This document shows, piece after piece, positions 8,701-55,004 of a DNA stretch of 64,000 nt. Numbering within the stretch: the stretch's first letter is position 1; the number at the start of each line of letters is the position of its first letter. Source of the DNA: Tilletia caries (lineage: Eukaryota > Basidiomycota > Exobasidiomycetes > Tilletiales > Tilletiaceae). The position numbers and the translations under genes are program-made. Under the pieces are notes generated by a model that ran no database searches, was not told where the DNA came from, and worked only from the letters and a program-made list of their open reading frames with translations. The stretch spans positions 1,674,001 through 1,738,000 of the forward strand of contig JALUTQ010000041.1 in assembly GCA_032718865.1 (NCBI GenBank). The letters are read 5' to 3'.

Positions 8701-9179
8701 ACCGATCATACCATACGCACAGCAGCCAGCCAGCCCGAAGGGAAACAGGAGAAGCAAGAGAAGGAGAGAAGTGGGAGGTGGGAGAGGTGGGGTAGAAGAA
8801 AGAGGGAAAGGAGACAAGAGCTGGCTCACCAAGAGGTTCCGCTTGTAGCGGTCCCAATTCTCCTTGACCTTAGGCGCCAGTGTGCTTTGCTTGAGGTGCA
8901 GTGTGAGGTCGATCGTCTCATTGATGTAGGGCGCCGCTCCAGTGCCTGTGTCGCTGTCGAGTGTGGTAGCATGAACAGCGGCCACTTCTTCGTCTGTAGC
9001 AAGAGCTCCTTCCCTTGCTAGCTGCTCAACCAGTTCAGGGGGAAGAATGCCAGGCCCACGGCCTCCAAATGTCTCTTGAGGCTCCGCCTCGGGGCCCAGA
9101 CCGTCCGGACGAGTGAAGGCATTAGAATCATTGAGAGACGGCCGGGAGGCAGAAGCAGAGGCTGTTTGTGTTCCGTTAC
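5744..9179 (-). pseudogene. Crypton-2 tyrosine recombinase, 3' part, frameshifted and split by an LTR element
   Basis: The downstream part of a Crypton gene homologous to Crypton-1 and Crypton-3. Exon 2b (9179-8830) holds the TRPDGLGPEAE motif; exon 3 (8592-8432) ends LVSEQKLVTYLK; exon 4 starts at 8362 (CFVLHKNPR). Next come the recombinase exon (about 7830-7030), with THAMRG, IHGRW and ERYL motifs, and a final exon with a GCR1_C-like domain (ELAREWYEG). Relative to Crypton-1 there are at least two frame breaks: one near 8010, before the conserved NAKL segment, and one near 7325, before the HAMR box. The copy is therefore probably dead. Exon 2 is interrupted at 9179/15974 by an LTR retrotransposon; across the insertion the frame is continuous once one copy of the 5-bp duplication is discounted. 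Confidence 0.75.
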
Positions 9180-9476
9180 TGTAATAGCAGGTGCTATTAG
9201 GCAAGTGAAAGCGAGGTGAATAATGGGAGAAGCTATCTACAAGAGAGTGGCGAGCAGGAAGATGATGAGGACAAGAGAGGGAAAGCACTCGGCCGAGAGA
9301 GGAAAGGCGAGAAGAAGAAAGGGAAAGGAGATAAGAGAGAGAAACGGAGATAAGATAGTAAAGCCACATGGTTTGCCACGTGGATTTACTATCTATGGAA
9401 GCGAGCAGCATTGAGAGAAGAGAAATGAGAGAGGAGAAAAAGAGAGCGGGAGAGGATGAGACCACCGTCTATCACA
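9180..9476 (-). repeat. 3' LTR (297 bp) of the nested element
   Basis: Ends TG...CA and is identical to the right LTR except for one extra A. It contains a perfect 8+2+8 inverted repeat at 9182-9199 (TAATAGCAGGTGCTATTA) and a second near-perfect inverted repeat at 9354-9393, whose arms carry CCACATGG and CCACGTGG. Both recur in the other LTR. Confidence 0.95.
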
Positions 9477-12400
9477 TCCCCCCCTCAAGCAGCTCGTCCG
9501 TCTCGGGACGAACTACCAGCCGTGACAGCGCATCAGCGTTGGTGTGCGAGCTTCCCGGCCGGTGTACAAACCGAAGATGGGCAAGATGCGGCATCAGAAG
9601 AGCGCGGCACCTCGAGATGACCGGCCCGTACTTTGCCCCGGCCGTGCTCGTCAACATAGCGCCTAGGGGCGCGTGATCCGTGACGACGGTCACATCGGCA
9701 CCCTCAAGAAGATGAAGGAAGCGGCCGAACGCCCAGGCCAAACAGCAAAGCTCGAGTTCGGCGGCCACCAGCTTCCGCTCCGCTGGCGCCGTCAACCTCG
9801 AGAGAAACGCAACCGGTTTCTCCACCAGTACGACCTCGCGCCCATCCTCCAAGCTCAGACGACGAGGGCGTCGATACGGCCCCCGCAAGTCCTCAACCGG
9901 AACGATCGACATCGAGAAGGTGCCCGGACCTGTCTCGTACTCCCGCATCGCGCGCGGAGCATGCCGTTCACGAGGAGGCAGCGAGGGCGAGACCTCAGGA
10001 GGAGAAGCAGGGGAAGCCGGGACAGGAGACGATGAAGTGGCAGGAGGCGATCCAGCACGGTGATTCTCGAAAGGATCTGGCACCGCCGGTGTAACGTCCA
10101 GCTGGCTGACATCGAACTCATTACCAATCCCAATTCCCTCAGGAAGAGCAAGGCGGACCCGATGTGGAGACAGCACCTCCAACACCTCGTACGGGCCCTG
10201 CTTCCGCGGCGCCAGCTTGTCGTGCAAGGCACCAGGCATCGGTCGATCGTCCAAACGGACGTACACGCGCGCCCCGGGCTCTAGAAGGGGAAGAGCCGCT
10301 CGCGAGCGATCGTAGTTGCGCTTCTGGGCCGCACGCGCCACCGATACCGCCTCCCTCGCCTCCGACAAACGAGCATCGGCGGCGGCCAGGCGCTCCGCGA
10401 AACTCCCGACACCAGAGTGCTCCTCGGAGTCGAACACCGCGTGCACCAGGTCGGGGTGGGCCACGAACACCAAATCAAACGGGCGCTCGCCGGTGGTCAC
10501 GGACGGAGTCGAGTTGATGGCGAGCTCGGCTGCCGGAACGGCACGGCGGTCCCAATGCGCTCTGGACGTGACGCAGAGGGATTGCAGAACAAACTTGGCG
10601 GTTTGAATAGTGCGTTCGACGGGGTTAGCCTGGTGATGGTGAGGAAGGGAGGGTCGGAGCTCGGCCTGCAGAGAGGCAGCCAACCGACGCATCACATCAC
10701 CGGTCAAACGCGCCTCCGAGTCTGGAACCAGGCGTCGTGGGCGCCAACCCATCCGCAGAACACGATCGCTCAAGATGGCCGCGATGTCCTCCGACGTCAC
10801 CGACGAAGAACATGGCTCCATCAAGACCATGCGCGAGAACAGGTCAAGAACGACCAGCACCGCGTCGTGGCCCGCCCTGGAACGGGGAAAACCCAACAAC
10901 AGATCGATGGAGATCGCCTCGAAGGGCAGAGCAGCATCCTTCCCAATCTCCAACTCTCCCGTTCTGCGCATCACCTTTGTGGAGATGCACGCAGCGCAGT
11001 GCCGCACCCACGCCCGGACGGCGACGGACAGGCTGGGGCGCCAGAAGTGGCGGGGAACGCGCAAGAAGGTCTTCGAGAACCCGAAGTGCCCAGCAGAGTC
11101 GTGGGCGGCGCGAAGGATAAACGGCACGCCAGCATCAGGCAAGGCCAGCACTCCATCGACTCGACGAACGAGAACGCCGTCCTCCACGAGCCATTCATCG
11201 GTGGCCCCCTCGCCGGCCTCCAACGACCGCACGATCGGCCCGAAAAGGCGATCATTCAGCAGCCAGGTGCGCCATCTCTCCTTCGACACCGTCGGCGGTA
11301 GCAAACGCGCGTCAAGAGGGAACATCTCGGCGGCGCCTGGTCCATCATCGCGTTCAAAGACCTGGTGCAGCACGGCACCGAACCCTTCTTTACTGGCGTC
11401 CACATACAGGATGTATGGGCGAGTCGGATCGGGGTGTGCGAGGACGGGAGGAGTGGCGATGGCCGCCTTCAGCGTGTCAAACGCCAACTGCTGCGCATCA
11501 CCCCACGAAATCTCGACGCGAGCAGCGGACGCAGCGACCCCGTCCGAACCTACCAACTGATAGCGCTCACCGACCTTCGCGTACCGCCAACCTTGTGTCA
11601 GCTGTGACAGAGGCGCCGCCACAGAAGCGAAGTTCGGCACAAAGGCCCGGTAGTATCCGAAGAGCCCGAGCGCGTGGTACAGGTCACGGAGGGTGCGCGG
11701 TCGAGGCAGATCCAACACGGCCTTCGCCCTATCGCCCCAGACGGCCACACCCGCAGCAGAAACCTTTCGCCCAAGAAGCACTAGCGACGACACCGCGAAG
11801 GTGCACTTCGCAGGGCTAAATCGGAGACCCGCCGAAGACACGCGCGCCAGCAAGGTGTCGAGCGCAACCACATGCTCCGTCATCGTGTGGGTCGCGACAA
11901 CAACGTCGTCGATATACACAACGGCATCCTTCCAGCGAAGTTCCCCCAACAACGCGTCCATTAGGCGCTGGAACACGGCCGGGGCGTTGCGCAACCCGAA
12001 TGGCACCGTCTTATACTGGAAGAGGCCTCGGTGGCAGGTAAATGCCGTCTTCCACCGATCCTGCTCCCGGACACCCAACTGGTGGTACCCACGCAACGCA
12101 TCAAGCGAACTGAAGACGCGCTTTCCGGTGAGTGAGTTGAACACGGAGTCGGTCGTGGGCAGTGGGTAGGAGTCCGGGATGGTGTGCGCATTGAGCTGAC
12201 GATAGTCCACGCAAAACCGCCATTTGTCATATTGGCGAACCATCAGAACGGGGAACGATACCGGACTCGTGCTGGGTTCGATCACGTCCCAGGACAGCAG
12301 CTGGTCAATGGCCGAGTCCATGGCCCGACGCTTCTCAGGACTGGCCCGACGCGGAGCCTCAGGGTGTAAGGCAGCATCGTCACGCAGATCAATCGGCATC

Positions 12401-13161
12401 TCGTGTCCGATCACCCGACCAGGCCGCCCGTCCAGCGCAAACGCTCCGCGATGCCGACGGAGGACGTCGACGACCTCCGCATCCGGCTCACCACCGACCC
12501 CGACGCCCACCTTAAAGACGTCGTCCACCATCACCGTCGTCGGCTCGGGAGACGAAGGAGGGGGAGATGGAGCCGCGTCATCCGCGCTGATGTCGAGCGG
12601 GCTCACATCCACATCCGCGAGCGGCGCCAACGAGGCATCGGCGAGATGCACACCAGCCGCGGCAGGGGCGATGGGCAGGAGCTCAAAGGTGTGAGAGGTG
12701 TGAACTTGCGCGTCGCCGACGTGCGCAGCCAGGGCATCGGCAACAGGGGTGCGGCGCTCCACGACTGCGTCAGTGGTGCCGACGTTGGTAAGGAGGATGT
12801 GGGTCGCGGAGCGTCCAGTGATCGCAACCGGGCCGGCCAGCTGCACGGTCTCCGAGGCGTCGACCGTCAAACGGGGAAACACGGTGTAGTCCACCCCCGG
12901 CGCCAAACAAGCCACATCCACGGGTACCCAGGCGTGCGAGCGGGCCGACACCACCACGTCGCGCACCACGCACAATTCAGCAGCGTGGTGTAAGGCGCAG
13001 GCATGTGCTCGCGCACAGAGAAGGTGGGCACCGCACCATCGTGAGCGACTGTCGCTGCGCCGTTGGCGGAGTCGATGACGACGCCGTGTGTACTGACAAA
13101 GTCTTGTCCGAGACACAGCCCCGGCGCAAACGCCTCCAGGACGTGGAAGTCCAAGGAGCAT
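9472..13161 (-). CDS. Pol polyprotein: RT, RNase H (N part), integrase, RNase H (C part)
   Basis: Long open frame of 1229 codons; true translation probably enters from the upstream protease frame near codon 60. Reverse transcriptase spans about residues 295-500 with YIDD at 416-419. The first RNase H strand follows (YVDAS, Asp588), but the domain stops about 20 residues later. Integrase comes next: zinc-binding H687, H692, C722 and C725; catalytic Asp753, Asp814 and Glu849; a QGPYEV module at about 988-993. Only after a Pro/Ser-rich linker (1030-1095) does the rest of RNase H appear (about 1104-1213): FLSRLTAPAE, Glu1137, VVTDHAPL with Asp1162, and NADALSRL with Asp1210. In ordinary Ty3/Gypsy pols these pieces are contiguous before the integrase. 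The frame has no internal stop and ends in the LTR. Confidence 0.9.
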   Translation of the reverse strand: MLLGLPRPGGVCAGAVSRTRLCQYTRRRHRLRQRRSDSRSRWCGAHLLCARAHACALHHAAELCVVRDVVVSARSHAWVPVDVACLAPGVDYTVFPRLTVDASETVQLAGPVAITGRSATHILLTNVGTTDAVVERRTPVADALAAHVGDAQVHTSHTFELLPIAPAAAGVHLADASLAPLADVDVSPLDISADDAAPSPPPSSPEPTTVMVDDVFKVGVGVGGEPDAEVVDVLRRHRGAFALDGRPGRVIGHEMPIDLRDDAALHPEAPRRASPEKRRAMDSAIDQLLSWDVIEPSTSPVSFPVLMVRQYDKWRFCVDYRQLNAHTIPDSYPLPTTDSVFNSLTGKRVFSSLDALRGYHQLGVREQDRWKTAFTCHRGLFQYKTVPFGLRNAPAVFQRLMDALLGELRWKDAVVYIDDVVVATHTMTEHVVALDTLLARVSSAGLRFSPAKCTFAVSSLVLLGRKVSAAGVAVWGDRAKAVLDLPRPRTLRDLYHALGLFGYYRAFVPNFASVAAPLSQLTQGWRYAKVGERYQLVGSDGVAASAARVEISWGDAQQLAFDTLKAAIATPPVLAHPDPTRPYILYVDASKEGFGAVLHQVFERDDGPGAAEMFPLDARLLPPTVSKERWRTWLLNDRLFGPIVRSLEAGEGATDEWLVEDGVLVRRVDGVLALPDAGVPFILRAAHDSAGHFGFSKTFLRVPRHFWRPSLSVAVRAWVRHCAACISTKVMRRTGELEIGKDAALPFEAISIDLLLGFPRSRAGHDAVLVVLDLFSRMVLMEPCSSSVTSEDIAAILSDRVLRMGWRPRRLVPDSEARLTGDVMRRLAASLQAELRPSLPHHHQANPVERTIQTAKFVLQSLCVTSRAHWDRRAVPAAELAINSTPSVTTGERPFDLVFVAHPDLVHAVFDSEEHSGVGSFAERLAAADARLSEAREAVSVARAAQKRNYDRSRAALPLLEPGARVYVRLDDRPMPGALHDKLAPRKQGPYEVLEVLSPHRVRLALPEGIGIGNEFDVSQLDVTPAVPDPFENHRAGSPPATSSSPVPASPASPPEVSPSLPPRERHAPRAMREYETGPGTFSMSIVPVEDLRGPYRRPRRLSLEDGREVVLVEKPVAFLSRLTAPAERKLVAAELELCCLAWAFGRFLHLLEGADVTVVTDHAPLGAMLTSTAGAKYGPVISRCRALLMPHLAHLRFVHRPGSSHTNADALSRLVVRPETDELLEGGM
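9477..9490 (-). other. Polypurine tract candidate
   Basis: Read on the minus strand, the bases just before the 3' LTR are GAGGGGGGGA, the expected place and composition for plus-strand DNA priming in an LTR element. Confidence 0.75.
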
Positions 13162-13589
13162 TCAACCGTCACCCGGGAGCCGGGCGCGCCCCGGGCATCA
13201 ATGAAGAATGTGAGTGTGCACCAACCAAGGGATGACGCGGGACCCAGACCCTGAATCCGCATCGGCTGACCCTGCACCGTACCTCCCAACAACTCCAGCA
13301 GATTTCGATCGATGACAGACAAGGAGGCGCCCGTGTCCAAGAGCGAGGACAAAGGGGCGCCGTCGGTGTCATTGACACGGATCAGAGTTGTGAGTGGCAC
13401 ATGACGGCGATAAGCTAGGCCGGTCCCCACCTCCGGACCAGGCTGCAACACCACCGTCTGACCCCTACGTCTCGTCTTCTGACGCAGGGGCTTCGTATCT
13501 CGATCAACGGAAAACGTGCGGGCGGTAAACAGGTGGGGGGGCTGGGTACGATGGTAAGTACCTTCCCACCCGTCGGCGCCGGCTCCGTC
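12867..13589 (-). CDS. Retroviral-type aspartic protease frame of the nested element
   Basis: An open frame from 13589 downward contains a retropepsin-type core: LLDTGASLSVID (active-site DTGA) followed about 75 residues later by LCLGQDF and HGVVID. The protease would cleave Gag-Pol. The frame overlaps the pol frame at 12867-13161 and differs from it by one register (-1). The protein sense appears to pass from this frame to the RT frame near 12980-13010, so either ribosomes shift there or one base has been lost or gained. I see no classic slippery heptamer at that point. Confidence 0.75.
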   Translation of the reverse strand, partial: DGAGADGWEGTYHRTQPPHLFTARTFSVDRDTKPLRQKTRRRGQTVVLQPGPEVGTGLAYRRHVPLTTLIRVNDTDGAPLSSLLDTGASLSVIDRNLLELLGGTVQGQPMRIQGLGPASSLGWCTLTFFIDARGAPGSRVTVECSLDFHVLEAFAPGLCLGQDFVSTHGVVIDSANGAATVAHDGAVPTFSVREHMPAPYTTLLNCAWCATWWCRPARTPGYPWMWLVWRRGWTTPCFPV

Positions 13590-14088
13590 TCAGTCAAACA
13601 ATCTCTCATGTTCAGCAGGCTAGGTAGAGAATCTGTAAAAGGGAGAACGTGCTCATTAGGCCGTCCTATCTCTACAGGAGGGAGAGTCTGTACTCCCCTT
13701 GAAAAGGGTCCATGGGGTCTCAGGTCCGGGGGTGGTCCGGGTCCCCGGCCATCTCCGCACATGGCCTCCGCGTCGTCGTGGTACGCCGTGGGGAGGTCCT
13801 GTCTTGGACCAGAGGAGGACGCAACCCTCTCCCCACGGCCCTTGAATCCACCATCAGCGAGATGGTGCGGGTTGCTGTGAGTCGCTTGTTGCACCGACTC
13901 ACCGAGACGATCGTACTGACCGTCTCTACTGCTTATCGGCAGTGGATGGGTGCCGTCATCCCTTCTCAACTCGGGCCCGGTCTGAACCCCGTCAGGCGTG
14001 ACGCGGCAAACGCGATCGGGTGGCTCAGGCGGAACCGAGAGGAGGCATGGCCGATCAGGGACGGCCTCTAGTTTTACGACGTCGCGGT
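13590..14088 (-). other. Region between gag and protease of the nested element
   Basis: Between the gag stop and the protease frame, a different minus frame stays open (14227-13415, overlapping the gag end by 139 nt, -1 relative to gag). It could be a Pol leader reached by frameshifting, but I recognise no domain in it, and a second register change would be needed to reach the protease. Confidence 0.3.
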
Positions 14089-15576
14089 CTAAGCAAAAGA
14101 CTGCCCGTTGTCGATCTCGGGGAGTTCGACATCGTACTCGCCCACAGCGACCAGCGGGAAAGCGCGGGCGCCCTCCTTGAGCCAGACGTGCTCGAAGTCG
14201 AAGTGGGACTCGCCACACTGTCCGCAAGGCCGATTCAGGCGCATGATGGACCCGTTGTTGCGCCGGTACCCTCGCTTCTCGGTTGCGGTCGCCTCGATGA
14301 CTCGAGAAGGGTCGAAGCGATTGTCACCCGACGACGACTGCGAAGCAGGACGAGTCGGAGCGGGGGGGTGTCGCAGATCGGAGCGAGGAGGGCGGACGGG
14401 TGCCGGCGCGGTGAGTGACGGGGCTAGAGGAACAGATGTTCCGGATTGACCAGCCGACGACGGAATGATGAGGGGCGTGTTGCTGACCTCTCTCCACGTC
14501 GGTTCCCAGTCGCTGAGGGCGTCCTGGACATCTTCGGGGGAAACACCATCTTGCGGCAGACGGAGCATCGCCCTCATCGACGCCGGGAGGCCGGCAATGA
14601 CCTCCTGCGCGATGGAAGCCTCGGCGAAGAGATCTCCGAAGGCTTGACGATAGAGCTGGATCTTGTCGAAGTAGTAAGTCATGGCCCGCTCCGAACGTGC
14701 ATTCCAAACGCGGAGACGAGCCTGCTGACGCTGATCCGTCTTGTTGACGCGGAAGCGAAGACGCATGACGCGCACCCAGTCCGCGACAGTGCAGAGCTCG
14801 GCAGCGGCCGTGTTGGAAAGGCCGATGTGCCAAGTCTCGGCATCACCAGTGAGACACTGGGGGAGGGTGCATACGACGGCCGGCTCCCACAGCGGATCGG
14901 GGTTTGAACGAGCGATGTCCCGCAGCTTGCTCAGGAAACGTTCGAGCTTGCTTGTGTCGCCGTCGAACTCGCCCAAGGAGTCCTTCTTGCAGGTGAGTGA
15001 GCGAGTGCCACCCACCGTCGCCACCGACCGGACTGACTGAATGCTGTCTCCGGCACCCGAAAGCTTGGTAACCGACGAGTTATACTTGCCGAGGAGGGAG
15101 CGGAACTCGCTCTGGTCGGTCGGGCTCATCGAGGCGAGCAGGTCCTGCATCGTGACCGGGAGAGCGGGGCCGGAACGTGACGCCGAGGACGCGGATTGGT
15201 CTGAGGACGGGTCCGAGCCCATAGAGGTCGACGTCGACGTTTCCTGGGCAGCCGACGTTGACGAGGGTGCCGGAGCGGCAGACACAGCTGCAGAAGAGGG
15301 CCTCGGCGTGGAGGACCGAGGGGACGCGACCTCGACGCGGTCGATACGCGTGGAGATCTCGTCGTGGGATTGCTGGAGGGACTCGACCCGGGCCATCAAG
15401 GTTGTCTGGCCGTCGATGATCTCCCGGAGTTGCTGTCCGATGGTTTTCTCCACGACCGGGGCCTCGGACGGCGAGGCGACGGCAGCGGCAGGAATGTCCG
15501 TCGGAGCGTCGGACTCAGCACCCTGCTGGCGCTGCTTTCCGCGGGTGAGGGCGGGCGTGGTCTCTTTGGGCGGCAT
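14089..15576 (-). CDS. gag: Gag-like protein of the nested LTR element
   Basis: A 495-aa open frame beginning 101 nt inside the 5' LTR boundary. The N-terminus is low complexity (Ser/Ala/Pro) with a possible short coiled coil at about residues 45-80 (EKTIGQQLREIIDGQ). The central part resembles Ty3/Gypsy capsids (LGEFDGDTSKLERFLSKLRD; a tryptophan-rich downstream region). Near the C-terminus, CGQCGESHFDFEH is a variant zinc knuckle: C-x2-C is present, but the last ligands appear to be two histidines rather than His-Cys. It would form the particle shell. The next frame overlaps its end in -1 register. Confidence 0.85.
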   Translation of the reverse strand: MPPKETTPALTRGKQRQQGAESDAPTDIPAAAVASPSEAPVVEKTIGQQLREIIDGQTTLMARVESLQQSHDEISTRIDRVEVASPRSSTPRPSSAAVSAAPAPSSTSAAQETSTSTSMGSDPSSDQSASSASRSGPALPVTMQDLLASMSPTDQSEFRSLLGKYNSSVTKLSGAGDSIQSVRSVATVGGTRSLTCKKDSLGEFDGDTSKLERFLSKLRDIARSNPDPLWEPAVVCTLPQCLTGDAETWHIGLSNTAAAELCTVADWVRVMRLRFRVNKTDQRQQARLRVWNARSERAMTYYFDKIQLYRQAFGDLFAEASIAQEVIAGLPASMRAMLRLPQDGVSPEDVQDALSDWEPTWREVSNTPLIIPSSAGQSGTSVPLAPSLTAPAPVRPPRSDLRHPPAPTRPASQSSSGDNRFDPSRVIEATATEKRGYRRNNGSIMRLNRPCGQCGESHFDFEHVWLKEGARAFPLVAVGEYDVELPEIDNGQSFA

Positions 15577-15660
15577 TGTTGAGGAAACAAGCGGGGGTTG
15601 GGAGAAGGCGGAGGGTCTTGGGGTGGGTGGCTGGCTTCTGTCTGTCAGTTAGCGAGCAGT

Positions 15661-15677
15661 ATCCACTCTCATCACCA
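15661..15677 (-). other. Primer binding site candidate of the nested element
   Basis: Immediately inside the 5' LTR the minus strand reads TGGTGATGAGAGTGGAT. The leading TGG fits pairing with a tRNA CCA end. The following bases loosely resemble a serine tRNA 3' end, but I cannot confirm which tRNA. Confidence 0.6.
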
Positions 15678-15973
15678 TGTAATAGCAGGTGCTATTAGGC
15701 AAGTGAAAGCGAGGTGAATAATGGGAGAAGCTATCTACAAGAGAGTGGCGAGCAGGAAGATGATGAGGACAAGAGAGGGAAAGCACTCGGCCGAGAGAGG
15801 AAAGGCGAGAAGAAGAAAGGGAAAGGAGATAAGAGAGAGAAACGGAGATAAGATAGTAAAGCCACATGGTTTGCCACGTGGATTTACTATCTATGGAAGC
15901 GAGCAGCATTGAGAGAAGAGAAATGAGAGAGGAGAAAAGAGAGCGGGAGAGGATGAGACCACCGTCTATCACA
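15678..15973 (-). repeat. 5' LTR (296 bp) of the nested element
   Basis: Near-identical partner of the 9180-9476 LTR, ending TG...CA and followed by the GTTAC target duplication. The palindromic TAATAGCAGGTGCTATTA is at 15680-15697. Confidence 0.95.
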
Positions 15974-16488
15974 GTTACCGCTGGGATTCCACGTGGCAGG
16001 ATCTTCTGGTGTACGAAAGAAGGCAAGGTTCTGAGCTGCAGATCGTCCAGTTATGACGCGCATCTGCTATGCTACAGGAGAGCTAGTATCGAGGGAGCCG
16101 ATCCCACTTGAAAATCACAACGCGGTAAGAAAGTGTCAGCGTGCTCACGTAGGTCGCAGTCTGCATCTACTACGCACCTCCATGCCTCCGGAAATGTCTT
16201 CCTCCAGTCATAGAGGGTTGGTGCTCCCACCCCGAGAGCTTTGGCGCGGTCCTTGGCAGACACAGATCGCGTTGTGGGATCACCGAAAGCATACCACACT
16301 GCGCATCGTTTCTTGTTGGGAGTGTAGACTACCCCATCAGATCTTCGCTTCGTACCTCTCCCCCCTATCTGACTCCAGCTATTCTGTCCGGATGCTCCGG
16401 ATGGCATTGCAGCATCGCCGCGCGATGGCGACGCGCCGGATAGGCGCGGGTCCACTTCGAGATCGATGCGCGCCTGTCCCGAAGACAT
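15974..16488 (-). pseudogene. Crypton-2, 5' part (exon 1 and start of exon 2)
   Basis: Exon 1 (16488-16178) starts at an ATG giving MSSGQARIDLEVDPRL. It contains the N-terminal motif shared with the other Cryptons (DGVVYTPNKKRCAVWYAF, then TLYDWRKTF), probably a helix-turn-helix DNA-binding segment, and ends at a GTGCGT donor. Exon 2 begins at 16063 after a CAG acceptor (AAQNLAFFRTPEDPATW) and runs into the LTR element at 15973. The same open frame extends upstream to 16680, so an earlier start is possible, but the chosen start lies nearest the conserved block. Together with 5744-9179 this makes one gene, disabled by the insertion and by later frame breaks. Confidence 0.75.
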
Positions 16489-19004: not shown

Positions 19005-19514
19005 AAGCGGCCACTACTACTGTCTACTGCGTATCGTTTTGACCAGAGACTGATTAAGGCCTGAATAATGACTTCCTCCAACGAGTGGCCACGGGAAAAC
19101 GGGCGGGAAACGGTGAAAATGCCGAAAAATATATAACCTGAAAATTGTCAGCGAGTTCGGGGAAAACTCTGGTTTCAAGGCCACGTCACGTATGAGATTT
19201 GGGGTTGAGCGCGAGCTCGAACGCCGTGTTCCGCCGCTGTGTGCGGTCTCCCAAAGCAGGCGAAGCAACGCACGCCTGCAGCGGAACACGCGTCCCCCAA
19301 ATCGAGCGAGAAGGGGTGAGGCCTGAGGTCGGACTGCAATCGAAGGTCCAACAAGCGCTCCGGGGGGCGTGAATGATGAGAACGAGGTTTGAATTCTGCG
19401 GGAGACCGGGGAGAAGAGCGGGGCAGCAGGAGATCATCAGCATGGCGGGGAAGAAGGGAGAGGCGAACCATGTGAAGACTGTGAAATGGAGAAAATGGGA
19501 AATGCTAATTGCGT

Positions 19515-21261
19515 TTAGCCATTGGTGGTATCGACATGCGCAAAGACCCGACCGGCTGACACGTATAGGCGGCGCAGATAGACCAGCATAGCGTCCGACT
19601 TCCAGCGACCATGTCTGCGGATGTCGAGCTCGGGTATTCCCGCGTTCAGATAGAAGGTCGTCCCACCAATCCGCAGACAGTGGCCCAGGATGGGCGGCCT
19701 GTCTGCCGCGGGAGAGAAGACTGTTTGACACACGGATGCAATGATCAGTGGTTAGTTCCCGTACGCCCCCTGAGTCCAGAAAGGCGAAAGCACCCGCGTC
19801 CTGTGGAACATCTCGATTAACATGCAGGTGCCACCGAACGGCCGCCACCGGACACAAAGCTGGGGACGTAAGTTGCTGGGACGCAATGAGATCCGATCCA
19901 TTCGGTCCTTGAGTCTTGTCCGTGAGCAGACGGAGGGTGACTGTAGGAGCCGCCGAGCCTTCAGCGGGGCGGACGGTCCAGTGCAGACGCAGATACCTTG
20001 CAAGACGATCACGGGGCTCAGACAGGGTCTCCACAGTTAGCTCACCAGGACGCGCCAGACCGAAGAAGGCGAAGGAGACGCAGGCCCAGACCGCTGCCAT
20101 TGCACGATCGCGTTCAATAGGCAACCCATTCCGAATGATGCCGAGGTCTGCGATCCGCACAAGAGGCCGCGACGGCATGGCCTCGGGCTGACAAAGACGT
20201 GCCGCTCGACCGAGTCGCCTCGACATTTGTTCGTCGATCTTTAAATCAAACCCGTGAATGTGATGCCAAAGGGAGAGACCGGCGCGGCGATAGGTGTATG
20301 TGGAGCGAACATCCTCCATGTTGTCCGCAAAATATCGCAGCAAAACAGCTTCAGGAATGGGCAGACGTTGAGCAGGTGGAATTCCGTTTGCTTCGCACCA
20401 CCGCAGGAAAACGCGGACCGCACTCCCGTAGTTTTTAAGGGTCTTGTTCACCACCGAGCACGCAATCGAGACTTGAATTTTCCACCGCTGGGCCGTCGTA
20501 AGATCCGCAAAACGAAGGCTCCTCTGCTCGGGAAGGGGCCCGACGCAAAGCAAAACGTCCTGGCGGGCAACGGCCGAGGCCAGGGCAGCCGAAAGCGCAG
20601 GAAAAGAAGGAATGGTAGGAGGTCGCGCCCCGAAACGACTTCGTCCTCGTTGTGATGCAGCGGGCTGGGCAGCGACCGGAGGACTCCGGAAGGTAATGGA
20701 GGGCGGTCGAGCTCCCAAATCTGCCGCAGGGGGTGGCGCAGGCTGCGAGGAAGATGCCAACGCGGAGGTCATCCCCAGCGAGGGAGAGAATGCGGGGAAA
20801 GGAGCGTGAAAGGACTGTGATGAGGACGAAGAGGGGGGAAGTGGCGGAAGGAAGGAAAAAGGGGCTGGTGGGAGCGAAGAGCGTGAAGTTGCCGTGAGGG
20901 GAAGAAAGGAAGATGTCAGAGATTTTGGAAACAACGGCGCGGCAGGGATAACACTGGCCGCGACCAAAGACGAAGAGAGAACAGGAATCGATGACGGTTG
21001 GGAAGGTGACAATGCCGGAGAACACAGAGAGGACGGTGAATTTGGCGGGTTGGAGACGAGAGGAGAAGGCAGAGAGACGTTGAGAGGAGGGAGGGCATGT
21101 GAGGTGGACGCCGCTGACAACTCGGGAGTGCCGGTCAGGTCCCCCTGCGGCGAAGCAGAGGGGAGAGACCGCCCGTCGCAGATCATGCGCGGGGCAGGAT
21201 CCCGACCAGAATGGGCCACGGATCCTGCAGCTCGATGGGGAAGGGGAATATCCGGAGACAT
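19515..21261 (-). pseudogene. DIRS tyrosine recombinase (YR), broken by a +1 frame change
   Basis: Recombinase that would insert the circular DNA copy. Residues 1-215 are Ser/Pro-rich. The catalytic domain then runs in this frame: a SAM-like core (NKTLKNYGSAVRVFLRWCE), then FFGLARPGEL with the first catalytic Arg, then a domain ending near VRELTTDHCI. The last box, HCLRIGGTTFYLNAG (HxxR), RRHGRW and a candidate nucleophile in MLVYLRRL, lies in another frame (19733-19515). Joining needs a +1 register change between about 19720 and 19745. The copy is probably inactive unless this is a sequencing error or a programmed shift. The original frame runs on to 19186 without recognisable content. Confidence 0.75.
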
Positions 21262-23500
21262 CTCCGCGGGAGACTGCGTCTGCGGGGTTCAGCTTGGTGG
21301 AGACATAGGAGGCGCTAATTTCGACGCCGACTGTCGCCGCGCACGCCACTAGTCGGACGAAGGTTTCGTTTACCTGCTCGGAGGCCGACCGACGCTTCAG
21401 CCACCCCAGGAGTACCCCTTTGTTGTCCCCAATAATCGACAGAACGCAATCGGACTCGCCTAGGGCGATCGCCGCCTGCACTAACGACTCCATGGCCCAT
21501 GCTTCGGCGACTCCCATGTCGAAGCCCTGCCGTTCTTTCCAGCCGGCTGGGAGAGGCAAAAACCGAGCGAAAGGTCCGAAAATGATGCCGAGGCCGGTAT
21601 CGCACGCATCGGAGGCGTAGAGCGTGGTGGTAATGCGAGCAGGACGGCGGAATGAACGGAAAATTGGCCCCGTACTGAGAACATCGGCCCAGTGCCGCAA
21701 CTCGCTCCGCAGGGCCGATGTCGTGTGTTGGAACACGTAAGGAGCGAACAGAGCACGGCGGAAGAGGAGAGTTTGGCGGAGGTGACACCGTTGACCCGGA
21801 GCGAACAGGCAGACCCGCAGAAGGGACCCGACCAGGCTGTCCATCGCCGACCGGCCCACACGTTGGGACGGGTTGTCCAGGATGGTTGCAACTTTACTGA
21901 GGTACTTGACCCGCTTTGCCTTCGGCAGAGTCATTGTCTGATCGTCCAGATTCCACTCAATGCTTGTGAGCGTGAGGCAACGAGAGAAAGAAAAACCTTT
22001 CCGATTCGAAGGGTGGAGCGGCCATCCGAGACGTTCAAACTCCGCCCGCACCTGACTTTCGCTGAGGCCGGACGCAGGGCCGGCAAGGCGAATGGCACCA
22101 ATGTCGTCCACCCAAGAACCGAAAACGATTCCGGGCAGGCGCATCGCCACGACGTCGCACGAACAGTCGACGGTACGCCCCAAAATTGCACAAATGCCCT
22201 TGTGGCCAAAGGGGCTTGATGCTCGCACGTAGTTCTGATTCGGTCTCAAGCGCACGCAGAGGTACGGCCTCTGAGAAGGGTGAGGACATATGTTGTAGAA
22301 TGCGTCTCTGATGTCCATTCCCATGACGTCTGCAGTGGGTGGAAGTGAACGATACTGCAAGCATGAGATAAACGGACGCAACGAGGAGAGTATAAGCAAC
22401 GTGATCGTAAGAACGGACGGACGAACGTAACGACGCGGGAATTAACTGGTGGGAGTCACGGGGAACGGGGAATGGTCAAGGGAACGAGGGCCAATTCGCA
22501 AAGGACGAACGATCACGATGTGGTCGAGTGTGACGAAGGGCGACGCGGAAGCTCGGTGGCCGAAGGCCATTGCGGAAGAACGAAGAGAACGTAAAAGGGG
22601 ATGCGAAACGGGACGGGGGTGGGAGTCGCGGAACTGCGGAACTCGTGAAGTGGGAGGGGAGAACCTCGTTGAGTCGAGGCAGAAAGCGACCCTAGCCACC
22701 TGACTGCGAGGTTCCCAGGTTTGAGGTTGATGGATGAGGGCAGGAGGGAAAACGAAGAGGGGAATCGAAGGGAGGGGACGAGAGGGAGGAAGCGGGGGGC
22801 GGTTCGAGCGTGGAGCGAGGAAAGTAGGGTTCAGGGTAGCGGGTAGAAGGAGAGGGCAGAGGGCGCCGGATAAAAGCGGACGGGGAGAACGGGGACGGGA
22901 TGGCAATTCAACTCACTCGTTCGATTTGAGCGGAGACCGTGAACCACCTGCAGAAGAAAGTGTTTCTCGGAACCAAGGAATTGACGGAAGGATTCTCGCG
23001 GGCCAGCAGTGATTGAGATGAGAGTGGGCGTTGTCGGTGGAAACGAGGATGGCCGAGGTCCTCGACGATGCGATTCTTCGCTGGCTTCTCCGCGGTTGCT
23101 GGCGTGTGTATGACGCTGAGAGGGGCCGACCTCCAGGGGCCAACGGCGGCCATTTCATCGTCCGTGAAAGGTCCGAACGCCCTGCCGAGGCCAACCTCTG
23201 CCATAATCCATTCTTGTACGATGGGGGCCTCTACCTCCGTGTATCGATTGTCGGGAAGGAACGTTGTGGGCGGGGCGAGAGGGAGGCCGAGCCAGAAACC
23301 ACACTGGATCTGCAGGGGAATGTCAGCGTACTCCACCCGCAGATCTTCCGGAAGCTGCGCAATTGCCGAACTCCACTCCTGGTGACGAAGAGGCGTCACC
23401 ACCGCAGCGTACGCCTCTCTGACGGTCGTGTGTCGCGCAACCTCAGATCTGTGAGGGGCCGGGAGGAGAGAGGCTGAGGGCGGAAAAGAACTGCTGGAGG
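21200..23500 (-). CDS. DIRS-type reverse transcriptase-RNase H, with one intron
   Basis: Copies the element RNA into DNA. The first exon (about 23500-22917) ends in RT motifs (NRIVEDLGHPRF, then WFTVSAQIER). A 562-nt intron (22916-22355, GTGAGT to TTGCAG, phase 0) leads to the second exon: MGMDIRDAFYNI (first catalytic Asp), SSPFGHKGI, and GSWVDDIGAI with the catalytic VDD. RNase H follows: YASDACDTGLG (Asp), then IGDNKGVLLGW and NPADAVSRG (Asp). The same frame stays open to 20435 but is then antisense-like shadow over the YR gene. The start is uncertain because the frame overlaps the gag 3' end and extends upstream to 24788 without RT content. Confidence 0.8.
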
Positions 23501-24801
23501 GAGGAGCTAGAAGGGTCGGGAAAATGATACGTGGAGGTGGAGGGGACGGAGAAAGATGGGAAGGCCGAGGCAGGGCCAGAGGAGCCAAGAAATGGCTGCT
23601 GTGCAGACCCCGCAATTGCCGCAGCGCAGACGTTTGTACACGAGCGATGGTCACCACCGCAACGCGAACAGTAGTGACCGTACGGGCAGTGATATGATGT
23701 CGCATCCGCCGATCCAGAGGCCGGACCGCCTCGTGACCGGCCGGTAGAGCAGGCGAGGTTGCAGTTGTAGTTGAGGCAAACCTGCCGCTCCTTTCCGGAA
23801 AAAATCCATCCGTTTCTGGAGCGCACGAGGAGGGGGCTGGCTGGCGACACACACATCCTCCATCGATGCGTGGTTGTGAAAGAGCAGCACACCGGGCACC
23901 AAGATGGGATTGGAGGAGCGCTGGGGGCCGAACCAGAGAGCGAATGAGAGCCGGAAGAGGAAGCGGTGCGAGGGGCTTTTCTCTTGGGAGATGGTGGGGC
24001 AGAAGGAGGTGCTGCTTGAGCAGGATAAGACGGCGCTGGAACCGACAACGACTGACTGATGCGCATCCGGTCTGGGTACGCCGCGCCTGCCAGTCGAGCC
24101 CACGGGCTCGCGAAGGCCCCTGCAACCTCGACCGCGGCTCCCACGCCGTCATCTCGTCTGACTGCGCCCGCAGCGAGACCAAGAAGGGACTGGTTGATGA
24201 GGCGAATGTCGAAACCGATCTTGGAAGAGGTTTTACGGGCCGCTGCGTGTGTTGCCCGGACTCTATGGTCGTACTCCCGGAAGATGTCCCAGTTTCCTCT
24301 GTGAACAGCACCAGCGACCCGAACGAGATGTCCCGCGTAGACTGCTGCCTCCTTGTGGCCGGAAGGGGAAGCGTGCTGGAGGAGGACCAGATAGGCGGCA
24401 CTCGCTTGGATCCATTCGGGGAACGGAAGGAACCTGTCCGTGTGGACCCATTCGTCGAGGACACGGGCTGAAGCCGGGTCGAGAGGCAACTTGAAATCGG
24501 GACGGCCGCCACGAGAATGGTTGACCAGGCAGACGACAGTGAGGAGAGACAAAGGGACGGGGTGACCTGCTCGGTACAAGTCGATGAGGTCTTGAGGGAT
24601 GGGGTACGGGCTGTTTGCGAAGGGGTACACCAGAGGAACCACAGCAGAAGCAGCATCGGCAGGATTGAAATCAAGAGAGTTGTAGTCCGCTGTGGGTGGC
24701 GCCGCCATGTCGGCACCTCCGGCCGGAACTCCGTTTGAATCCGCGTTTCCCGCCGCCGCGTTGTTGTTGGAAGATGCAGAAGACGCATTGTTGTCCGACA
24801 T
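23443..24801 (-). CDS. gag: DIRS Gag-like protein with cysteine/histidine-rich region
   Basis: A 452-aa open frame; the start at 24801 (MSDNNASSASS) is preferred over the in-frame Met at 24840 because the extra residues look untranslated. The N-terminus is Asn/Ala-rich, followed by a folded middle (LSLLTVVCLVNHSRGGRPDF, EWIQASAAYLVLLQHAS) of the type seen in DIRS gag proteins. The C-terminal third has many Cys and His (WCPVCC, CLNYNCNLAC, CPYGHYCSRCGGDHRSC), probably zinc fingers that bind nucleic acid. The RT frame overlaps its end. Confidence 0.7.
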   Translation of the reverse strand: MSDNNASSASSNNNAAAGNADSNGVPAGGADMAAPPTADYNSLDFNPADAASAVVPLVYPFANSPYPIPQDLIDLYRAGHPVPLSLLTVVCLVNHSRGGRPDFKLPLDPASARVLDEWVHTDRFLPFPEWIQASAAYLVLLQHASPSGHKEAAVYAGHLVRVAGAVHRGNWDIFREYDHRVRATHAAARKTSSKIGFDIRLINQSLLGLAAGAVRRDDGVGAAVEVAGAFASPWARLAGAAYPDRMRISQSLSVPAPSYPAQAAPPSAPPSPKRKAPRTASSSGSHSLSGSAPSAPPIPSWCPVCCSFTTTHRWRMCVSPASPLLVRSRNGWIFSGKERQVCLNYNCNLACSTGRSRGGPASGSADATSYHCPYGHYCSRCGGDHRSCTNVCAAAIAGSAQQPFLGSSGPASAFPSFSVPSTSTYHFPDPSSSSLQQFFSALSLSPPGPSQI

Positions 24802-48740: not shown

Positions 48741-49362
48741 TGTCAGGGACAGCAAAGGGAAGCCTGTGGAAGGAGGAAGAAAGTGTGAACGAGGAGAAGG
48801 CGAGGAAGACGAGGAGTAGTGAAGTGAGGTAGTCCAGGCTTAGATTGATCAGTGAAGAGAAGTAATAGAACACAGAGGGAAATGGACCTCTTATATACAC
48901 GTTTGAGCTATGGGTGTACGAAGGGCTGTGAACGGAGAAGGTGGGAAGTCAGGAGTACGCGTAGGAGGGGAGCAGGGGCGAAGCGGGAAGAGGAGAGGCG
49001 GGAGACGAGTGGAAGAGATGGCGAGACTGGGCGAAGAGGGCGAGACTGGTGATAGGGCGGAAGCGGAGTGCCAAAAGGGACTGAAGCGGAGATGGCAGTG
49101 TGGTGATGAGACTGGGACCGGGTTGGATGATGGTCGCAGTCGAAGAGACGAGAATCAGGAGAGCGCGAGAGAGAGGGAGAAGCAGAAGGGGAAGCAGGGA
49201 AGATGGAAGCGGAGAAAGCAGAGAAGGTGGAAGCGGAGATGGAGGCGAGGATTATGGTGTTGGTTGTCGGAAGGTGAATGTTGAGGATGTTCTGGTTGAA
49301 GGTGTTGGTTCCAATGTGGTGACTTGTCGAGGCCGAGATGGTTCCAGGCTGTGATCCTCACA
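48741..49362 (-). repeat. 3' LTR (622 bp) of the chromovirus
   Basis: Ends TG...CA; pairs with 55026-55647. It contains the minus-strand TATA-like TATATAAG at 48890-48897. Confidence 0.95.
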
Positions 49363-49492
49363 CTATCCCCCTCTCAAGTGCCGAGCACCTGCGAGGCTGT
49401 GGTGTGGGAGAGTGCGCGGAGCAGGGCGGCGGTGGAGCGAGGAAACAGTGCGCTGGCGCCAAGCTGGAAAAAAAATTGCCTCTTTGAACGGC

Positions 49493-50520
49493 TCAATGGC
49501 CGCGGCCGCGGGAGCGCAAGACACGACCTTGAGCGGGAGGTTGAGACGCGAACGGAGCAGATGCCGTGCTTGTCGAGGGCGCTGCTGCTGCAGGTGCGGG
49601 AGCTGCTGGGTGCGGGAGGGCGGGCGGCGACGAGCGCGCGACGGGCGATGATGGTGCGGGGACTCGAGACAAGACGGCAGAGTCTTGTCGAGGCGAGATG
49701 GTAGTGCGCAGGGTGGACGAGGCCGGCTGCGATACACGCGCACGAGCAGGCAAAACACGATCTGGGAGAACAGAACGCGCAAATTGCTGCACGTCGCCGG
49801 GAGTTGCGCGGGGCTCGATGAGGACGCGGTCCCGGAGGTGGCGCACGTTGAAGGGCGTCGGGCGTAGGTCTGCCGGGACGGGGTAACGAGGGTAACGACG
49901 GTGGAAGGCCTGCAGGAGGGGCTCGAGGGATACTGGAATGTCGCTGAGAGAACGCCACGTGTCCTCCGAGGCAGGCTTATCGCGCCAGCGGAGAAGGTAA
50001 TGGTATCGGTTCCGAATCTTGCGCTGGTCAATGATCTGTTCCACTGCCTGCCATGCTTGATCGAGTGTGGGAGCAAGGGTGGGCGGGGCAGGGGGCGCGT
50101 CTGAGCTGTTGGAGCCGGCGAAGGGCTCAAGAAGCACAACGGGGAACACGGGGTGCAATGAGGAGAGCTGTGGAGGCAAGGTGAGCCGATAGGCAGAGCT
50201 GCCGATCTGCTCGGAGATCTCGAAGGGGCCAAGGCGACGATGATCCAACTTGTCCGAGGGACGTGTGGTTGGAATGTTGCGGCGGAGTAACCAAACACGA
50301 TCGCCCGTCTTGTACTGAGGAGCAGGCGTGCGATGCTGGTTGTAGTAGGAAGCCATCTGGTCTTTGGCCCACCTGAGTTGAGCGCGCACCTCGTGCCATG
50401 TGCGCTCGAGGTGCTCGGCAAGCTGCTCGGCAGCGGGAACGACTGTGGAGGAGGCGATGCCGGGAGCGAACGAGGGGTGGTATCCACGAGTGATGAAAAA
50501 GGCGATTGCTCGGTGGAGGC
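49493..50520 (-). CDS. Integrase C-terminus and chromodomain of the chromovirus (frame 2)
   Basis: Continues the Pol protein after a one-base register change at a run of five A (plus strand 50496-50500). Features in order: FFITRGYHPS, a conserved integrase core end; a GPF-type module (RRLGPFEISEQIGSSAYRL); and a chromodomain at about 50050-49892 (VEQIIDQRKIRNRYHYLLRW, then WRSLSDI), which in this family directs insertion to marked chromatin. A Pro/Ser-rich tail follows to 49493. It belongs to the same gene as the preceding pol frame; a one-base homopolymer loss, real or from sequencing, explains the break. Confidence 0.8.
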
Positions 50521-53500: not shown

Positions 53501-53931
53501 AGAGTCTGGTCGAGCTCGGTGAGAGAGCTGTCGAGGTCGTTTTTCTTGATGAAGGTTGGAGAGACGAAAAGGCCGAGGGCGCCGGAGTCGATAACGCATT
53601 GCGCGGTGAGGGTCTGAGACGAGAGAATGAGAGAACCGGAGACTGTGAAATGGGAAAGCGGATCAGAAAAGGAAGAGGGCATGGTGGGAGTTGCCTGCGT
53701 GGGCAACACCGGAGGCGCAGTTGGGAGCGGCACGAGGGTGAGCTGCCGCTGCGCCTGGCCGGGGCTCGCCGCGAGGTCGGGGCCGTCTAATCCCGCAGCC
53801 GAGCGTTTCCCGATACCGGATTGGCGGCGCGGGCAGAACGCGGGGCTGCTTGACGGGTTGCAGCGACCCGGGGAGCAGGTCGGGGAGGTCGAACAGGGCA
53901 GTCGCGTTTGATGTGGCCGGGCTGCTCGCAA
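50500..53931 (-). CDS. pol: Pol of the chromovirus: protease, RT, RNase H, integrase
   Basis: Open frame numbered from codon 1 at 53931; translation would enter by -1 frameshift at 53805-53811. Protease active site DSGA at about 115-118. RT about 370-620 with motif YLED at 523-526, where Y-x-D-D is expected. RNase H is contiguous: LITDASDF (Asp674), YDKEMLAI, TILTDHRNL and ADPPSRR. A Ser/Pro linker with a short tandem repeat follows. Integrase: His pair near 933-941, C971/C974, catalytic Asp1004, Asp1064 and Glu1100 (D,D-35-E). After codon ~1145 the protein sense leaves this frame; the frame itself runs on to 49363 without meaning. Confidence 0.88.
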
Positions 53932-55004
53932 TAGACGCAGAGGCCCATATCGAATCGTCGCTGTCGTTCTTCAGGCGTGAGAGCCTGGAACGCGGGAGCG
54001 CCGGGGCGGGGAGGCGACGTCAACGCGACGCGAGGAGCAGGTCGGCCCGGGGCGAAAGAAGGTCGAGGAGCGCCGGGGGAGAAGGAAGGCCGAGGAGCCG
54101 CAGAAGGGAAAGAGCTGCGGAAGGTACTCGCGATGGCAGAAGAGGAGTTAGCGTACGAGGAAGAGACGCCGCGTGATGTAAGTCGTTGTTCGACATCACG
54201 CTCCATCTTTCGCTCCATGAGACGGTTGTCGACGATGACCGCGAGCGCGATCATCTCCTCAAGTGTCTGAGGTTTGCCGCGCTGATGAACCTCGTCCTTG
54301 ACGTAGGTCTTGAGGCCGTTGTAGAAGTTGTCGGCGATGCGGCGGGGCGTGTCGTCGAGCTCGTAGCAATATGATTGGTACTCCGCGGCGTAGTTTGCCA
54401 CGGAGGTCTTTTGAACCAAGGTCTTGAGCTTGCGTTCGGCGGTAGCGCGGCGGTCGGGGTCGTCGAAGGTGGCATTGAAGAAGCGAAGGAACGTCTGCCA
54501 GTCGAGTAATTCGGGGATGACGAACTCGTATAAGGTCGAGTCGAACTGAAAGTTGGGGTCGAAGATGAGAAGTGGCTGAGGAGGGTAGGACGAGGCTCGG
54601 ACGATGTTTTCGGCCTTGATATACTGATCCGCATTGCGGCGAAGCAGGCCGAGGAACCACTTGAGAGCCGAGTCCTTGAGGAAAGAGGTGAAATATAGAA
54701 TTTTGGTGTGGACCGTGTTGTAACGAGCCTGGTCCGAGGCAAGATTGGCGAGGACATGGTACAGGAAGTCTTGGGACTCCCGGATGTCGCCGGCGAAGGT
54801 GGGTGGGGTGTGGAGTCGGGGTCCACGAGAATCGGCCGGTCGTAAGGAGGCGAGGGCGGCCGCAATCTGGGAGGTTGCTTGGGCAAGCATGGCCGACATG
54901 TCGACCGGTGGCGGAGGAGGGGGAGCTTGGGAACCTGGAGGAGGAGGCGGATTTGCCTCGGTGCCGGCGAAGGCGGGCATAGGGGTGTCTTGTACGATGT
55001 CCAT
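53787..55004 (-). CDS. gag: Gag of the chromovirus with CCHC knuckle
   Basis: 405 aa; the ATG is 21 nt inside the 5' LTR. The Pro-rich N-terminus is followed by a capsid-like region (PPTFAGDIRESQDFLYHVL, ALKWFLGLLRRN, DWQTFLRFFNATFDDPDRR), a Ser/Pro/Arg linker and a classical zinc knuckle CVYCEQPGHIKRDC. It ends at a TAG five codons after the GGGAAAC heptamer, where a share of ribosomes would slip into pol. Confidence 0.9.
   Translation of the reverse strand: MDIVQDTPMPAFAGTEANPPPPPGSQAPPPPPPVDMSAMLAQATSQIAAALASLRPADSRGPRLHTPPTFAGDIRESQDFLYHVLANLASDQARYNTVHTKILYFTSFLKDSALKWFLGLLRRNADQYIKAENIVRASSYPPQPLLIFDPNFQFDSTLYEFVIPELLDWQTFLRFFNATFDDPDRRATAERKLKTLVQKTSVANYAAEYQSYCYELDDTPRRIADNFYNGLKTYVKDEVHQRGKPQTLEEMIALAVIVDNRLMERKMERDVEQRLTSRGVSSSYANSSSAIASTFRSSFPSAAPRPSFSPGAPRPSFAPGRPAPRVALTSPPRPGAPAFQALTPEERQRRFDMGLCVYCEQPGHIKRDCPVRPPRPAPRVAATRQAAPRSARAANPVSGNARLRD
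53805..53811 (-). promoter_or_regulatory. Programmed -1 frameshift heptamer GGGAAAC
   Basis: On the minus strand G GGA AAC is aligned with the gag codons (TCG GGA AAC) in the X XXY YYZ pattern. Slipping back one base enters the pol frame before the gag stop. GC-rich sequence about 20 nt downstream could form the usual stimulating hairpin (CTCG-CGG-CGAG core). Confidence 0.75.

What the first reader, a model, noticed from the sequence alone, without database searches (positions are those of the whole stretch)
9472..11420. RNase H split in two by the integrase in a recently mobile LTR element
In the pol frame the first RNase H strand with its catalytic Asp588 follows RT as usual. The remaining three quarters (Glu1137, Asp1162, Asp1210) come after the integrase and GPY module, 549 residues away. 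There is no stop in the frame; the LTRs differ by one base and the target duplication is perfect, so an element of this layout has moved recently. The second LTR element in the window has the normal order. Either the domain assembles from two Pol fragments or the permuted piece works in trans. I know of no described Ty3/Gypsy lineage with this layout.
Basis: partly seen in the sequence, partly recalled or inferred. Interest (0 to 1): 0.88.

Follow-up and report, generated by a model that had tools for sequence, protein, structure and literature searches.

The report
Integrase nested inside split RNase H
In smut fungi of the genus Tilletia, a group of recently active jumping elements has its DNA-inserting enzyme placed in the middle of its RNA-cutting enzyme, an arrangement that the searches made here did not find described.

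Summary
The window's 1229-aa pol frame has strands 1-2 of RNase H (catalytic Asp588) after RT, then an integrase, then the rest of RNase H (Glu1137, Asp1162, Asp1210). It is no local error: among host-genome matches scored, 48 of 70 'second-part-only' RNase H matches have an integrase zinc finger within 4 kb, all upstream; 50 of 75 full-length ones have one, all downstream. Of 137 Tilletia proteins, 111 show the complete split order, none the canonical. Split elements form one group in an RT tree, beside canonical basidiomycete elements. Five of ten LTR pairs compared are identical. Catalytic residues are near-invariant and both parts evolve under purifying selection. Best reading: integrase is an inserted domain in the loop between RNase H strands 2 and 3, and the two parts refold into one nuclease. 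AlphaFold confidence fits this but no coordinates could be read; covariation was inconclusive; several copies have frame breaks in the second part. The layout was seen only in Tilletia, by a search of limited reach. Ten literature searches showed no description. New variant of a known kind.

The parts
9180..15973 (-). LTR retrotransposon carrying the split RNase H
   Evidence: LTR pair, 5-bp duplication GTTAC (read)
15678..15973 (-). 5' LTR (296 bp)
9180..9476 (-). 3' LTR (297 bp), one gap from the 5' LTR
9175..9179 (.). target site duplication GTTAC, left
15974..15978 (.). target site duplication GTTAC, right
15660..15677 (-). putative primer binding site directly after the 5' LTR, by position
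   Evidence: its first seven bases TGGTGAT recur beside all ten LTR pairs (read)
9477..9486 (-). putative polypurine tract directly before the 3' LTR, by position; it codes the last residues of pol
14089..15576 (-). gag-like ORF, 495 aa (weak Retrotrans_gag match, below cut-off)
12867..13454 (-). ORF with aspartic protease match, out of frame with RT in this copy
9472..13161 (-). pol ORF, 1229 aa
11770..12228 (-). reverse transcriptase (RVT_1, aa 312-464)
11353..11505 (-). RNase H part 1 (aa 553-603): beta1-beta2 with Asp588
10975..11118 (-). integrase zinc-binding domain (aa 682-729)
10615..10917 (-). integrase core (weak Pfam match aa 749-842; D753, D814, and E849 just beyond it)
10099..10269 (-). 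integrase C-terminal SH3/GPY module (aa 965-1021)
9877..10098 (-). variable linker (aa 1022-1095), mostly low model confidence, weaker constraint
9502..9876 (-). RNase H part 2 (aa 1096-1220): beta3 to the end, with Glu1137, Asp1162, Asp1210

Best explanation
This is a Tilletia lineage of Ty3/Gypsy-type LTR retrotransposons in which the integrase coding region sits inside the RNase H domain, in the loop between strands beta2 and beta3. Shown: RT, then RNase H strands 1-2, integrase and the rest of RNase H lie in one frame; the order is the rule in this lineage; copies with it inserted recently; both RNase H parts are kept by selection. Inferred: the chain folds with integrase looped out on two flexible linkers, and the two RNase H parts close into one ordinary catalytic domain, within one Pol chain or between the two chains of an RT dimer. 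Whether protease later cuts the linkers, leaving a non-covalently held RNase H, is not known. The layout probably arose once, by one rearrangement in a basidiomycete element of the normal order.
For: Genome-wide order among scored matches: second-part-only RNase H matches have a zinc finger upstream in 48 of 70 (median 1372 bp), downstream in 0, none within 4 kb in 22; full-length ones have it downstream in 50 of 75, upstream in 0, none in 25 (from the capped lists). 21 of 50 own-genome matches, the window's own included, run collinearly from before part 1 past E1137. 111 of 137 Tilletia proteins show the full split order; 124 of 137 carry part 2, in each case after whatever integrase matches the protein has; 0 canonical. 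The same models read 115 of 120 relatives of a canonical element as canonical, median gap 6 residues between the parts, 0 split. RT tree: split rows one group, SH-aLRT 99. Catalytic residues: D588 74 of 75, E1137 76 of 76, D1162 75 of 76, D1210 75 of 75. dN/dS in L009/L011: RT 0.03, part 1 0.06, IN 0.06, linker 0.40, part 2 0.11. Model 2: confidence 93-94 for residues 41-60 (strands 1-2) and 77-95 for residues 541-660 (part 2). Model 1: best match Ty3 RT 4ol8_B, 414 of 452 residues, model range 1-988. Break site: part 1 aligns to Ty3 RNase H up to residue 377 and part 2 from 383 (the part 2 stretch is not significant alone). Five of ten LTR pairs identical.
Against: Model 1 has pTM 0.38 and its Ty3 alignment an rmsd of 16.3, so the placement of RNase H against RT is not fixed. 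Fold searches with model 2 were filled by integrases and could not test RNase H. No coordinates could be read, so active-site distances are untested. The Ty3 match of part 2 has an independent E-value of 30 (4ol8) or 6.7 (7q5b); its identity as RNase H rests on the Pfam match. Covariation between the parts was inconclusive: the strongest single pair links them, but of the top 30 pairs only 6 do (24 link part 1 to integrase), 47 of 149 control windows reach the strand-2/strand-3 score and 63 of 114 the strand-1/strand-4 score. Part 2 is broken in several copies, three of them with identical LTRs. No activity, transcript or processing data exist here.
Confidence: 0.82

Rival explanations
1. The protease cuts Pol on both sides of integrase; part 2 is then a separate small protein that joins part 1 non-covalently, perhaps on another Pol molecule (trans complementation). 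This is a variant of the best explanation, not its opposite.
For: Canonical Ty3-type Pol is cut between RT-RNase H and IN (recalled). Both linkers are poorly ordered in model 2 (residues 64-74 and 494-539), and the C-side linker is under weaker constraint.
Against: I sought no cleavage site. Nothing in the sequence data separates this from an uncut chain.
Confidence: 0.35
2. RNA splicing (or a protein-splicing step) removes the integrase region so that a contiguous RNase H is made from part of the transcripts.
For: It would restore the canonical domain.
Against: A GTRNGT donor occurs in the stretch aa 598-680 in 1 of 11 open copies, and the YAG sites listed (first six per copy) share no position and vary in phase. 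No Pfam match lies in the linkers of the window pol. Other donor forms were not tested.
Confidence: 0.04
3. Part 2 is dispensable or vestigial, or serves another role, and RNase H activity comes from the host or another element.
For: Of seven copies translated in three frames, part 2 is interrupted in five (L013, L016, L049, L050, L051), whole but out of frame with integrase in L020, and open in L052; L049-L051 belong to elements with identical LTRs.
Against: These seven were looked at because matches stopped short there; in the alignment of 14 long frames part 2 is open and in frame in 11. Catalytic residues are near-invariant in both parts and dN/dS is low. L005, with identical LTRs, has the whole order in one open frame. 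The breaks lie at different places in near-identical copies, as expected of homopolymer errors or fresh decay, and defective copies can be moved in trans.
Confidence: 0.06
4. Local assembly error or a single rearranged copy.
For: None beyond prior likelihood.
Against: Same order at 48 places of the genome and in proteins from five named Tilletia species.
Confidence: 0.005

Closest known systems
Ty3 (Saccharomyces) RT-RNase H and integrase, PDB 4ol8 and 7q5b
   Same: RT (strongly), RNase H part 1 (weakly) and integrase (strongly) align to Ty3; part 2 aligns at Ty3 383-438, not significant alone
   Different: In Ty3 the two RNase H stretches lie 5 residues apart and integrase follows; here 511 residues, including integrase, lie between them
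Canonical Tilletia family of locus L023, and Cutaneotrichosporon elements (P0158, P0162, P0183)
   Same: Nearest RT relatives in the tree (branch of 40 rows, SH-aLRT 98); L023 scores best of 11 canonical elements with the RT and part 2 models
   Different: Contiguous RNase H before integrase; L023 has part 1 at 465-512 and part 2 at 518-621. With the integrase models L022, and with the part 1 model L025, score higher than L023, so the kinship rests on RT and part 2
Dual-RNase H elements: plant Athila/Tat, oomycete Chronos and Archon, Odin, retroviruses (PMC5348765 and PMC9040795, passages seen)
   Same: Departures from the standard RNase H arrangement in the Ty3/Gypsy sphere
   Different: Those gained a second RNase H; here there is one, in two pieces
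RNases H2 and H3 (PMC3985635, passages seen)
   Different: There helices; here a whole integrase
Gmr1-type elements (order recalled: integrase upstream of RT)
   Same: Changed pol order within Ty3/Gypsy
   Different: Whole domain moved, none split; here RT stays upstream of integrase

Membership tests
Ty3/Gypsy superfamily by RT | RT most similar to Ty3/Gypsy RTs | tested here: met
   Best PDB sequence match is the Ty3 polyprotein, E 4.5e-79; groups among canonical elements, one of them named Ty3-gypsy (P0153). No Copia or Bel outgroup was in the tree
Ty3/Gypsy superfamily by RT | RT upstream of integrase (unlike Copia) | tested here: met
Ty3/Gypsy superfamily by RT | LTRs with TG..CA ends, PBS and PPT, short target duplication | tested here: met
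   For the window element; PBS and PPT by position only. 5-bp duplications read for 9 of 10 pairs
Canonical Ty3/Gypsy pol layout | Contiguous RNase H between RT and integrase | tested here: not met
Chromovirus | C-terminal chromodomain | tested here: not met
   No Chromo match at E up to 1 in the window pol; the second element of the window has one
Dual-RNase H elements | A second complete RNase H domain | tested here: not met
   Only two complementary partial matches in the window pol
Functional RNase H | All four acidic catalytic residues present and conserved | tested here: met
Functional RNase H | The four residues meet in one active site | tested here: inconclusive
   Model confidence and strand pattern fit; no coordinates; covariation inconclusive
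Functional RNase H | Cleaves RNA in RNA-DNA hybrids | not testable with these tools
   needs an assay

The most novel reading that the evidence does not exclude
The nesting is functional coupling rather than a tolerated accident: RNase H can form only if the integrase between its halves has folded (or been cut free), so template degradation, RT maturation and integrase assembly are interlocked in one chain. This would make the element an obligate single-chain RT-RNase H-integrase with a built-in order of events.
Probability: 0.15. Interest if true: 0.92.

Novelty: new variant of a known kind. Interest (0 to 1): 0.78.

Why it matters
RT-RNase H-integrase order is treated as a defining, nearly frozen trait of Ty3/Gypsy elements. 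A diverse and recently active lineage in which one catalytic domain is inserted into another would show that this order can change through the middle of a domain without loss of mobility. It offers a natural split RNase H, a test of whether RT and integrase must be separated by protease, and a caution for TE annotation: a tool that looks for one contiguous RNase H could score these elements as degenerate.

Tried and rejected
Assembly error or single odd copy: rejected. Splicing: no conserved donor or acceptor of the forms tested. Recent chimera with a foreign RNase H: not supported; distances in part 2 follow those in RT (r 0.72) and integrase (r 0.79), and part 1 against part 2 gives 0.50, with no value above 0.10 in 200 permutations each. 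Relatives in viral contigs: none confirmed (one scan). Fold searches with model 2: the 50 rows shown by each were integrases, or Ty3 and retroviral intasomes, so RNase H was not tested. Covariation between the parts: inside the RNase H block the best strand-2/strand-3 register was the expected one (i+j 625), but with integrase columns as control it was not exceptional (47 of 149 windows reach it), the strand-1/strand-4 test failed (63 of 114 controls reach it), and RHC partners make up 6 of the top 30 pairs, no more than their share of columns. Independent-pair tests had too few pairs; the printout was cut, and I saw only part of it. I count all this as no evidence. Spread outside Tilletia: (part 2 alone) found 124 proteins, 120 listed, all named Tilletia; one search found 235, 120 listed, all named Tilletia. 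The unlisted hits were not seen and the search needs shared 5-residue words, so absence elsewhere is not shown. The last protein search used a canonical relative (1761 hits, 120 listed). Literature: ten searches of an open-access library; no title, abstract start or passage that I saw describes the layout; listings were capped. Seen of papers: passages only of PMC3248453, PMC8556966, PMC9172201, PMC5348765, PMC5408684, PMC9040795, PMC3985635; the listing abstract of PMC10684912. The Gmr1 order and Ty3 Pol processing are recalled.

Rows dropped and limits: own-genome lists hold 150 scored matches each of 315, 322 and 200 candidates, and the pol search scored 38 of 521, so copy numbers are lower bounds. 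Alignments A1 and A2 hold 75 of the 137 listed proteins, chosen for length and coverage (fragments and very long fusions left out). The tree was given 80 sequences and kept 74; of the 120 proteins, 42 were given. It is a quick tree, midpoint-rooted, and it warns that the long-branched C_P0196 sits beside the split rows. Of the 120, the 5 not classed are two contiguous ones without an integrase match (P0150, P0151) and three with odd order (P0153, P0156, P0251), none of them split as here. The dN/dS used 10 pairs among 11 open-frame copies; in several, synonymous sites were saturated and no ratio was possible. Printouts were cut in the middle.

Full report
What is there. The window lies in a 38.1-Mb, 40-contig genome. 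Close relatives of its pol come from Tilletia: P0001 of T. controversa is 91% identical over 93%, and in the RT tree two host copies equal proteins of T. laevis and T. caries over the RT stretch used. The host is therefore most likely a Tilletia of the wheat-bunt group; I did not identify the species. The element spans 9180-15973 on the minus strand, with LTRs of 296 and 297 bp that differ by one gap, TG..CA ends and a GTTAC duplication. Its pol ORF of 1229 aa contains RT, then only the first half of an RNase H profile, then zinc finger, core and SH3 module of an integrase, then only the second part of an RNase H profile.

Where the break lies. Against Ty3 RT-RNase H (4ol8), residues 323-376 of the modelled piece (aa 552-605 of the ORF) align to Ty3 324-377, and residues 888-943 (aa 1117-1172) to Ty3 383-438. 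The first stretch has an independent E-value of 0.0042; the second, 30, is not significant alone but lies collinear and just where expected, and the Pfam match to part 2 is independent of it. The missing five Ty3 residues are one loop; here 511 residues sit in it. Both models put strands beta1-beta2 before and beta3 onwards after the integrase. A review of the superfamily notes that RNases H2 and H3 carry helices between beta2 and beta3 and that elsewhere insertions among the first three strands are relatively rare (PMC3985635, passage).

It is a lineage, not a copy. Own-genome searches with RNase H and zinc-finger profiles (150 matches scored each) give two clean classes: 75 full-length RNase H matches, 50 with a listed zinc finger within 4 kb, all downstream; and 70 matches to the second part alone, 48 with a zinc finger within 4 kb, all upstream at a median of 1372 bp. 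Five matches fall between the classes. One second-part match (C35:522619) abuts a first-part match and is better read as a decayed contiguous copy; no zinc finger was listed near it. In the pol search 21 of 50 matches, the window's included, run collinearly from before part 1 past E1137, 12 of them without a stop inside. In public proteins the order RT, part 1, zinc finger, core, SH3, part 2 is complete in 111 of 137 and never canonical; 13 lack part 2. The same profiles read 115 of 120 relatives found with a canonical element as canonical and none as split; 5 could not be classed. Eleven canonical elements of the same genome, the window's second element among them, have RTs 24-37% identical to the window's, against 70% or more within the split lineage.

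Origin. In an RT tree of 74 rows the 24 split rows form one side of a branch (SH-aLRT 99), in a branch of 40 (98) that also holds a canonical Tilletia family (locus L023 and 11 public proteins), three Cutaneotrichosporon elements and one unnamed long-branched protein (quick method, midpoint root, long-branch warning). One origin from a canonical basidiomycete ancestor fits best. Matches in one genome go down to 55% identity with the window pol, and split proteins are named from T. indica, T. walkeri, T. controversa, T. caries and T. laevis, so the change probably predates these species (inference).

Activity and selection. Ten LTR pairs of the lineage were compared: five are identical over 289-316 columns, the window pair has one gap, three have one or two mismatches (two of these alignments run past the LTR end), and one has a partner matching over 146 bp only. 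I read 5-bp duplications for nine of ten. One identical pair flanks L005, whose 1601-aa frame is open and has the split order. Catalytic residues of RT, RNase H and integrase are near-invariant in 76 aligned sequences. In the one pair with unsaturated and sufficient divergence (L009/L011), dN/dS is 0.06 for part 1 and 0.11 for part 2, against 0.03 for RT, 0.06 for integrase and 0.40 for the linker. Where finite in the more diverged pairs, part 2 gives 0.07-0.22. Against this, of seven copies whose matches stopped short or lay near such copies and that I translated in three frames, part 2 is interrupted in five (L013, L016, L049-L051), whole but out of frame with integrase in L020, and open in L052 over the stretch fetched. 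In the alignment of 14 long frames it is open and in frame in 11. The breaks differ among near-identical copies, so assembly error at homopolymers is possible; I restored nothing.

How it works. I infer that part 1 and part 2 refold into one RNase H with integrase looped out. Model 2 (aa 545-1222, 76 sequences, mean confidence 81) gives 93-94 for residues 41-60 and 77-95 for residues 541-660, with about 40 in the C-side linker. An isolated two-strand hairpin would hardly score so, and the 15-residue strand 3 has no partner of that length in part 2 itself; both are arguments from confidence and strand lists, since no coordinates could be read. The best structural match of model 1 is Ty3 RT, 414 of 452 residues, spanning model 1-988, but with rmsd 16.3. 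Covariation was tried and is inconclusive. Splicing is not supported. Cis folding, an RT dimer with swapped halves, and assembly after protease cleavage remain open.

Novelty. Ten full-text searches showed no description of the layout (listed under Tried and rejected with what I saw). [quoted passage not shown] the words RNase H and integrase do not occur in its main text (PMC9172201). Elements with a second RNase H are known but are a different change. I file it as a new variant of Ty3/Gypsy elements.

Noticed in passing
window 10615-10722 (aa 814-849) and alignment: The integrase of the split lineage has one residue less between the second Asp and Glu (34 instead of 35) than most canonical Tilletia elements aligned with it.
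   Followed up: partly
window about 11518-11604 (aa about 520-548): The split lineage has an extra stretch of roughly 25 residues between RT and RNase H part 1 that the canonical Tilletia elements aligned with it lack.
   Followed up: no
G000:C37:5990-18872: Three RNase H part 2 matches spaced about 6,348 bp apart on one strand, as in a tandem array of elements.
   Followed up: no
L013, L049, L050, L051 against L052: Related or near-identical copies have one-base frame breaks inside RNase H part 2 at different places, perhaps homopolymer errors of the assembly.
   Followed up: partly
window 48741-55325: Second LTR element (300-bp repeats 99% alike) is a canonical chromodomain element; its SH3-chromodomain part lies in another frame (ORF 49493-50599) than its RT and integrase core.
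   Followed up: partly
window 9472-9486: The last pol codons and stop overlap the polypurine tract and the first bases of the 3' LTR, so RNase H part 2 ends right at the element's own primer site.
   Followed up: no
window 19186-24788: Long minus-strand ORFs, partly overlapping, of which the three tested have no Pfam match at E up to 0.01; by eye they look like RT and recombinase pieces of another retroelement type.
   Followed up: no
L002 (G000:C39:83086-89727): The copy 99% identical to the window element has an open protease-RT frame, but its 5' LTR matches over only 146 bp.
   Followed up: partly
P0251: A fish protein (Coilia grayii) among the canonical relatives has its integrase matches upstream of RT, with a contiguous RNase H.
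   Followed up: no
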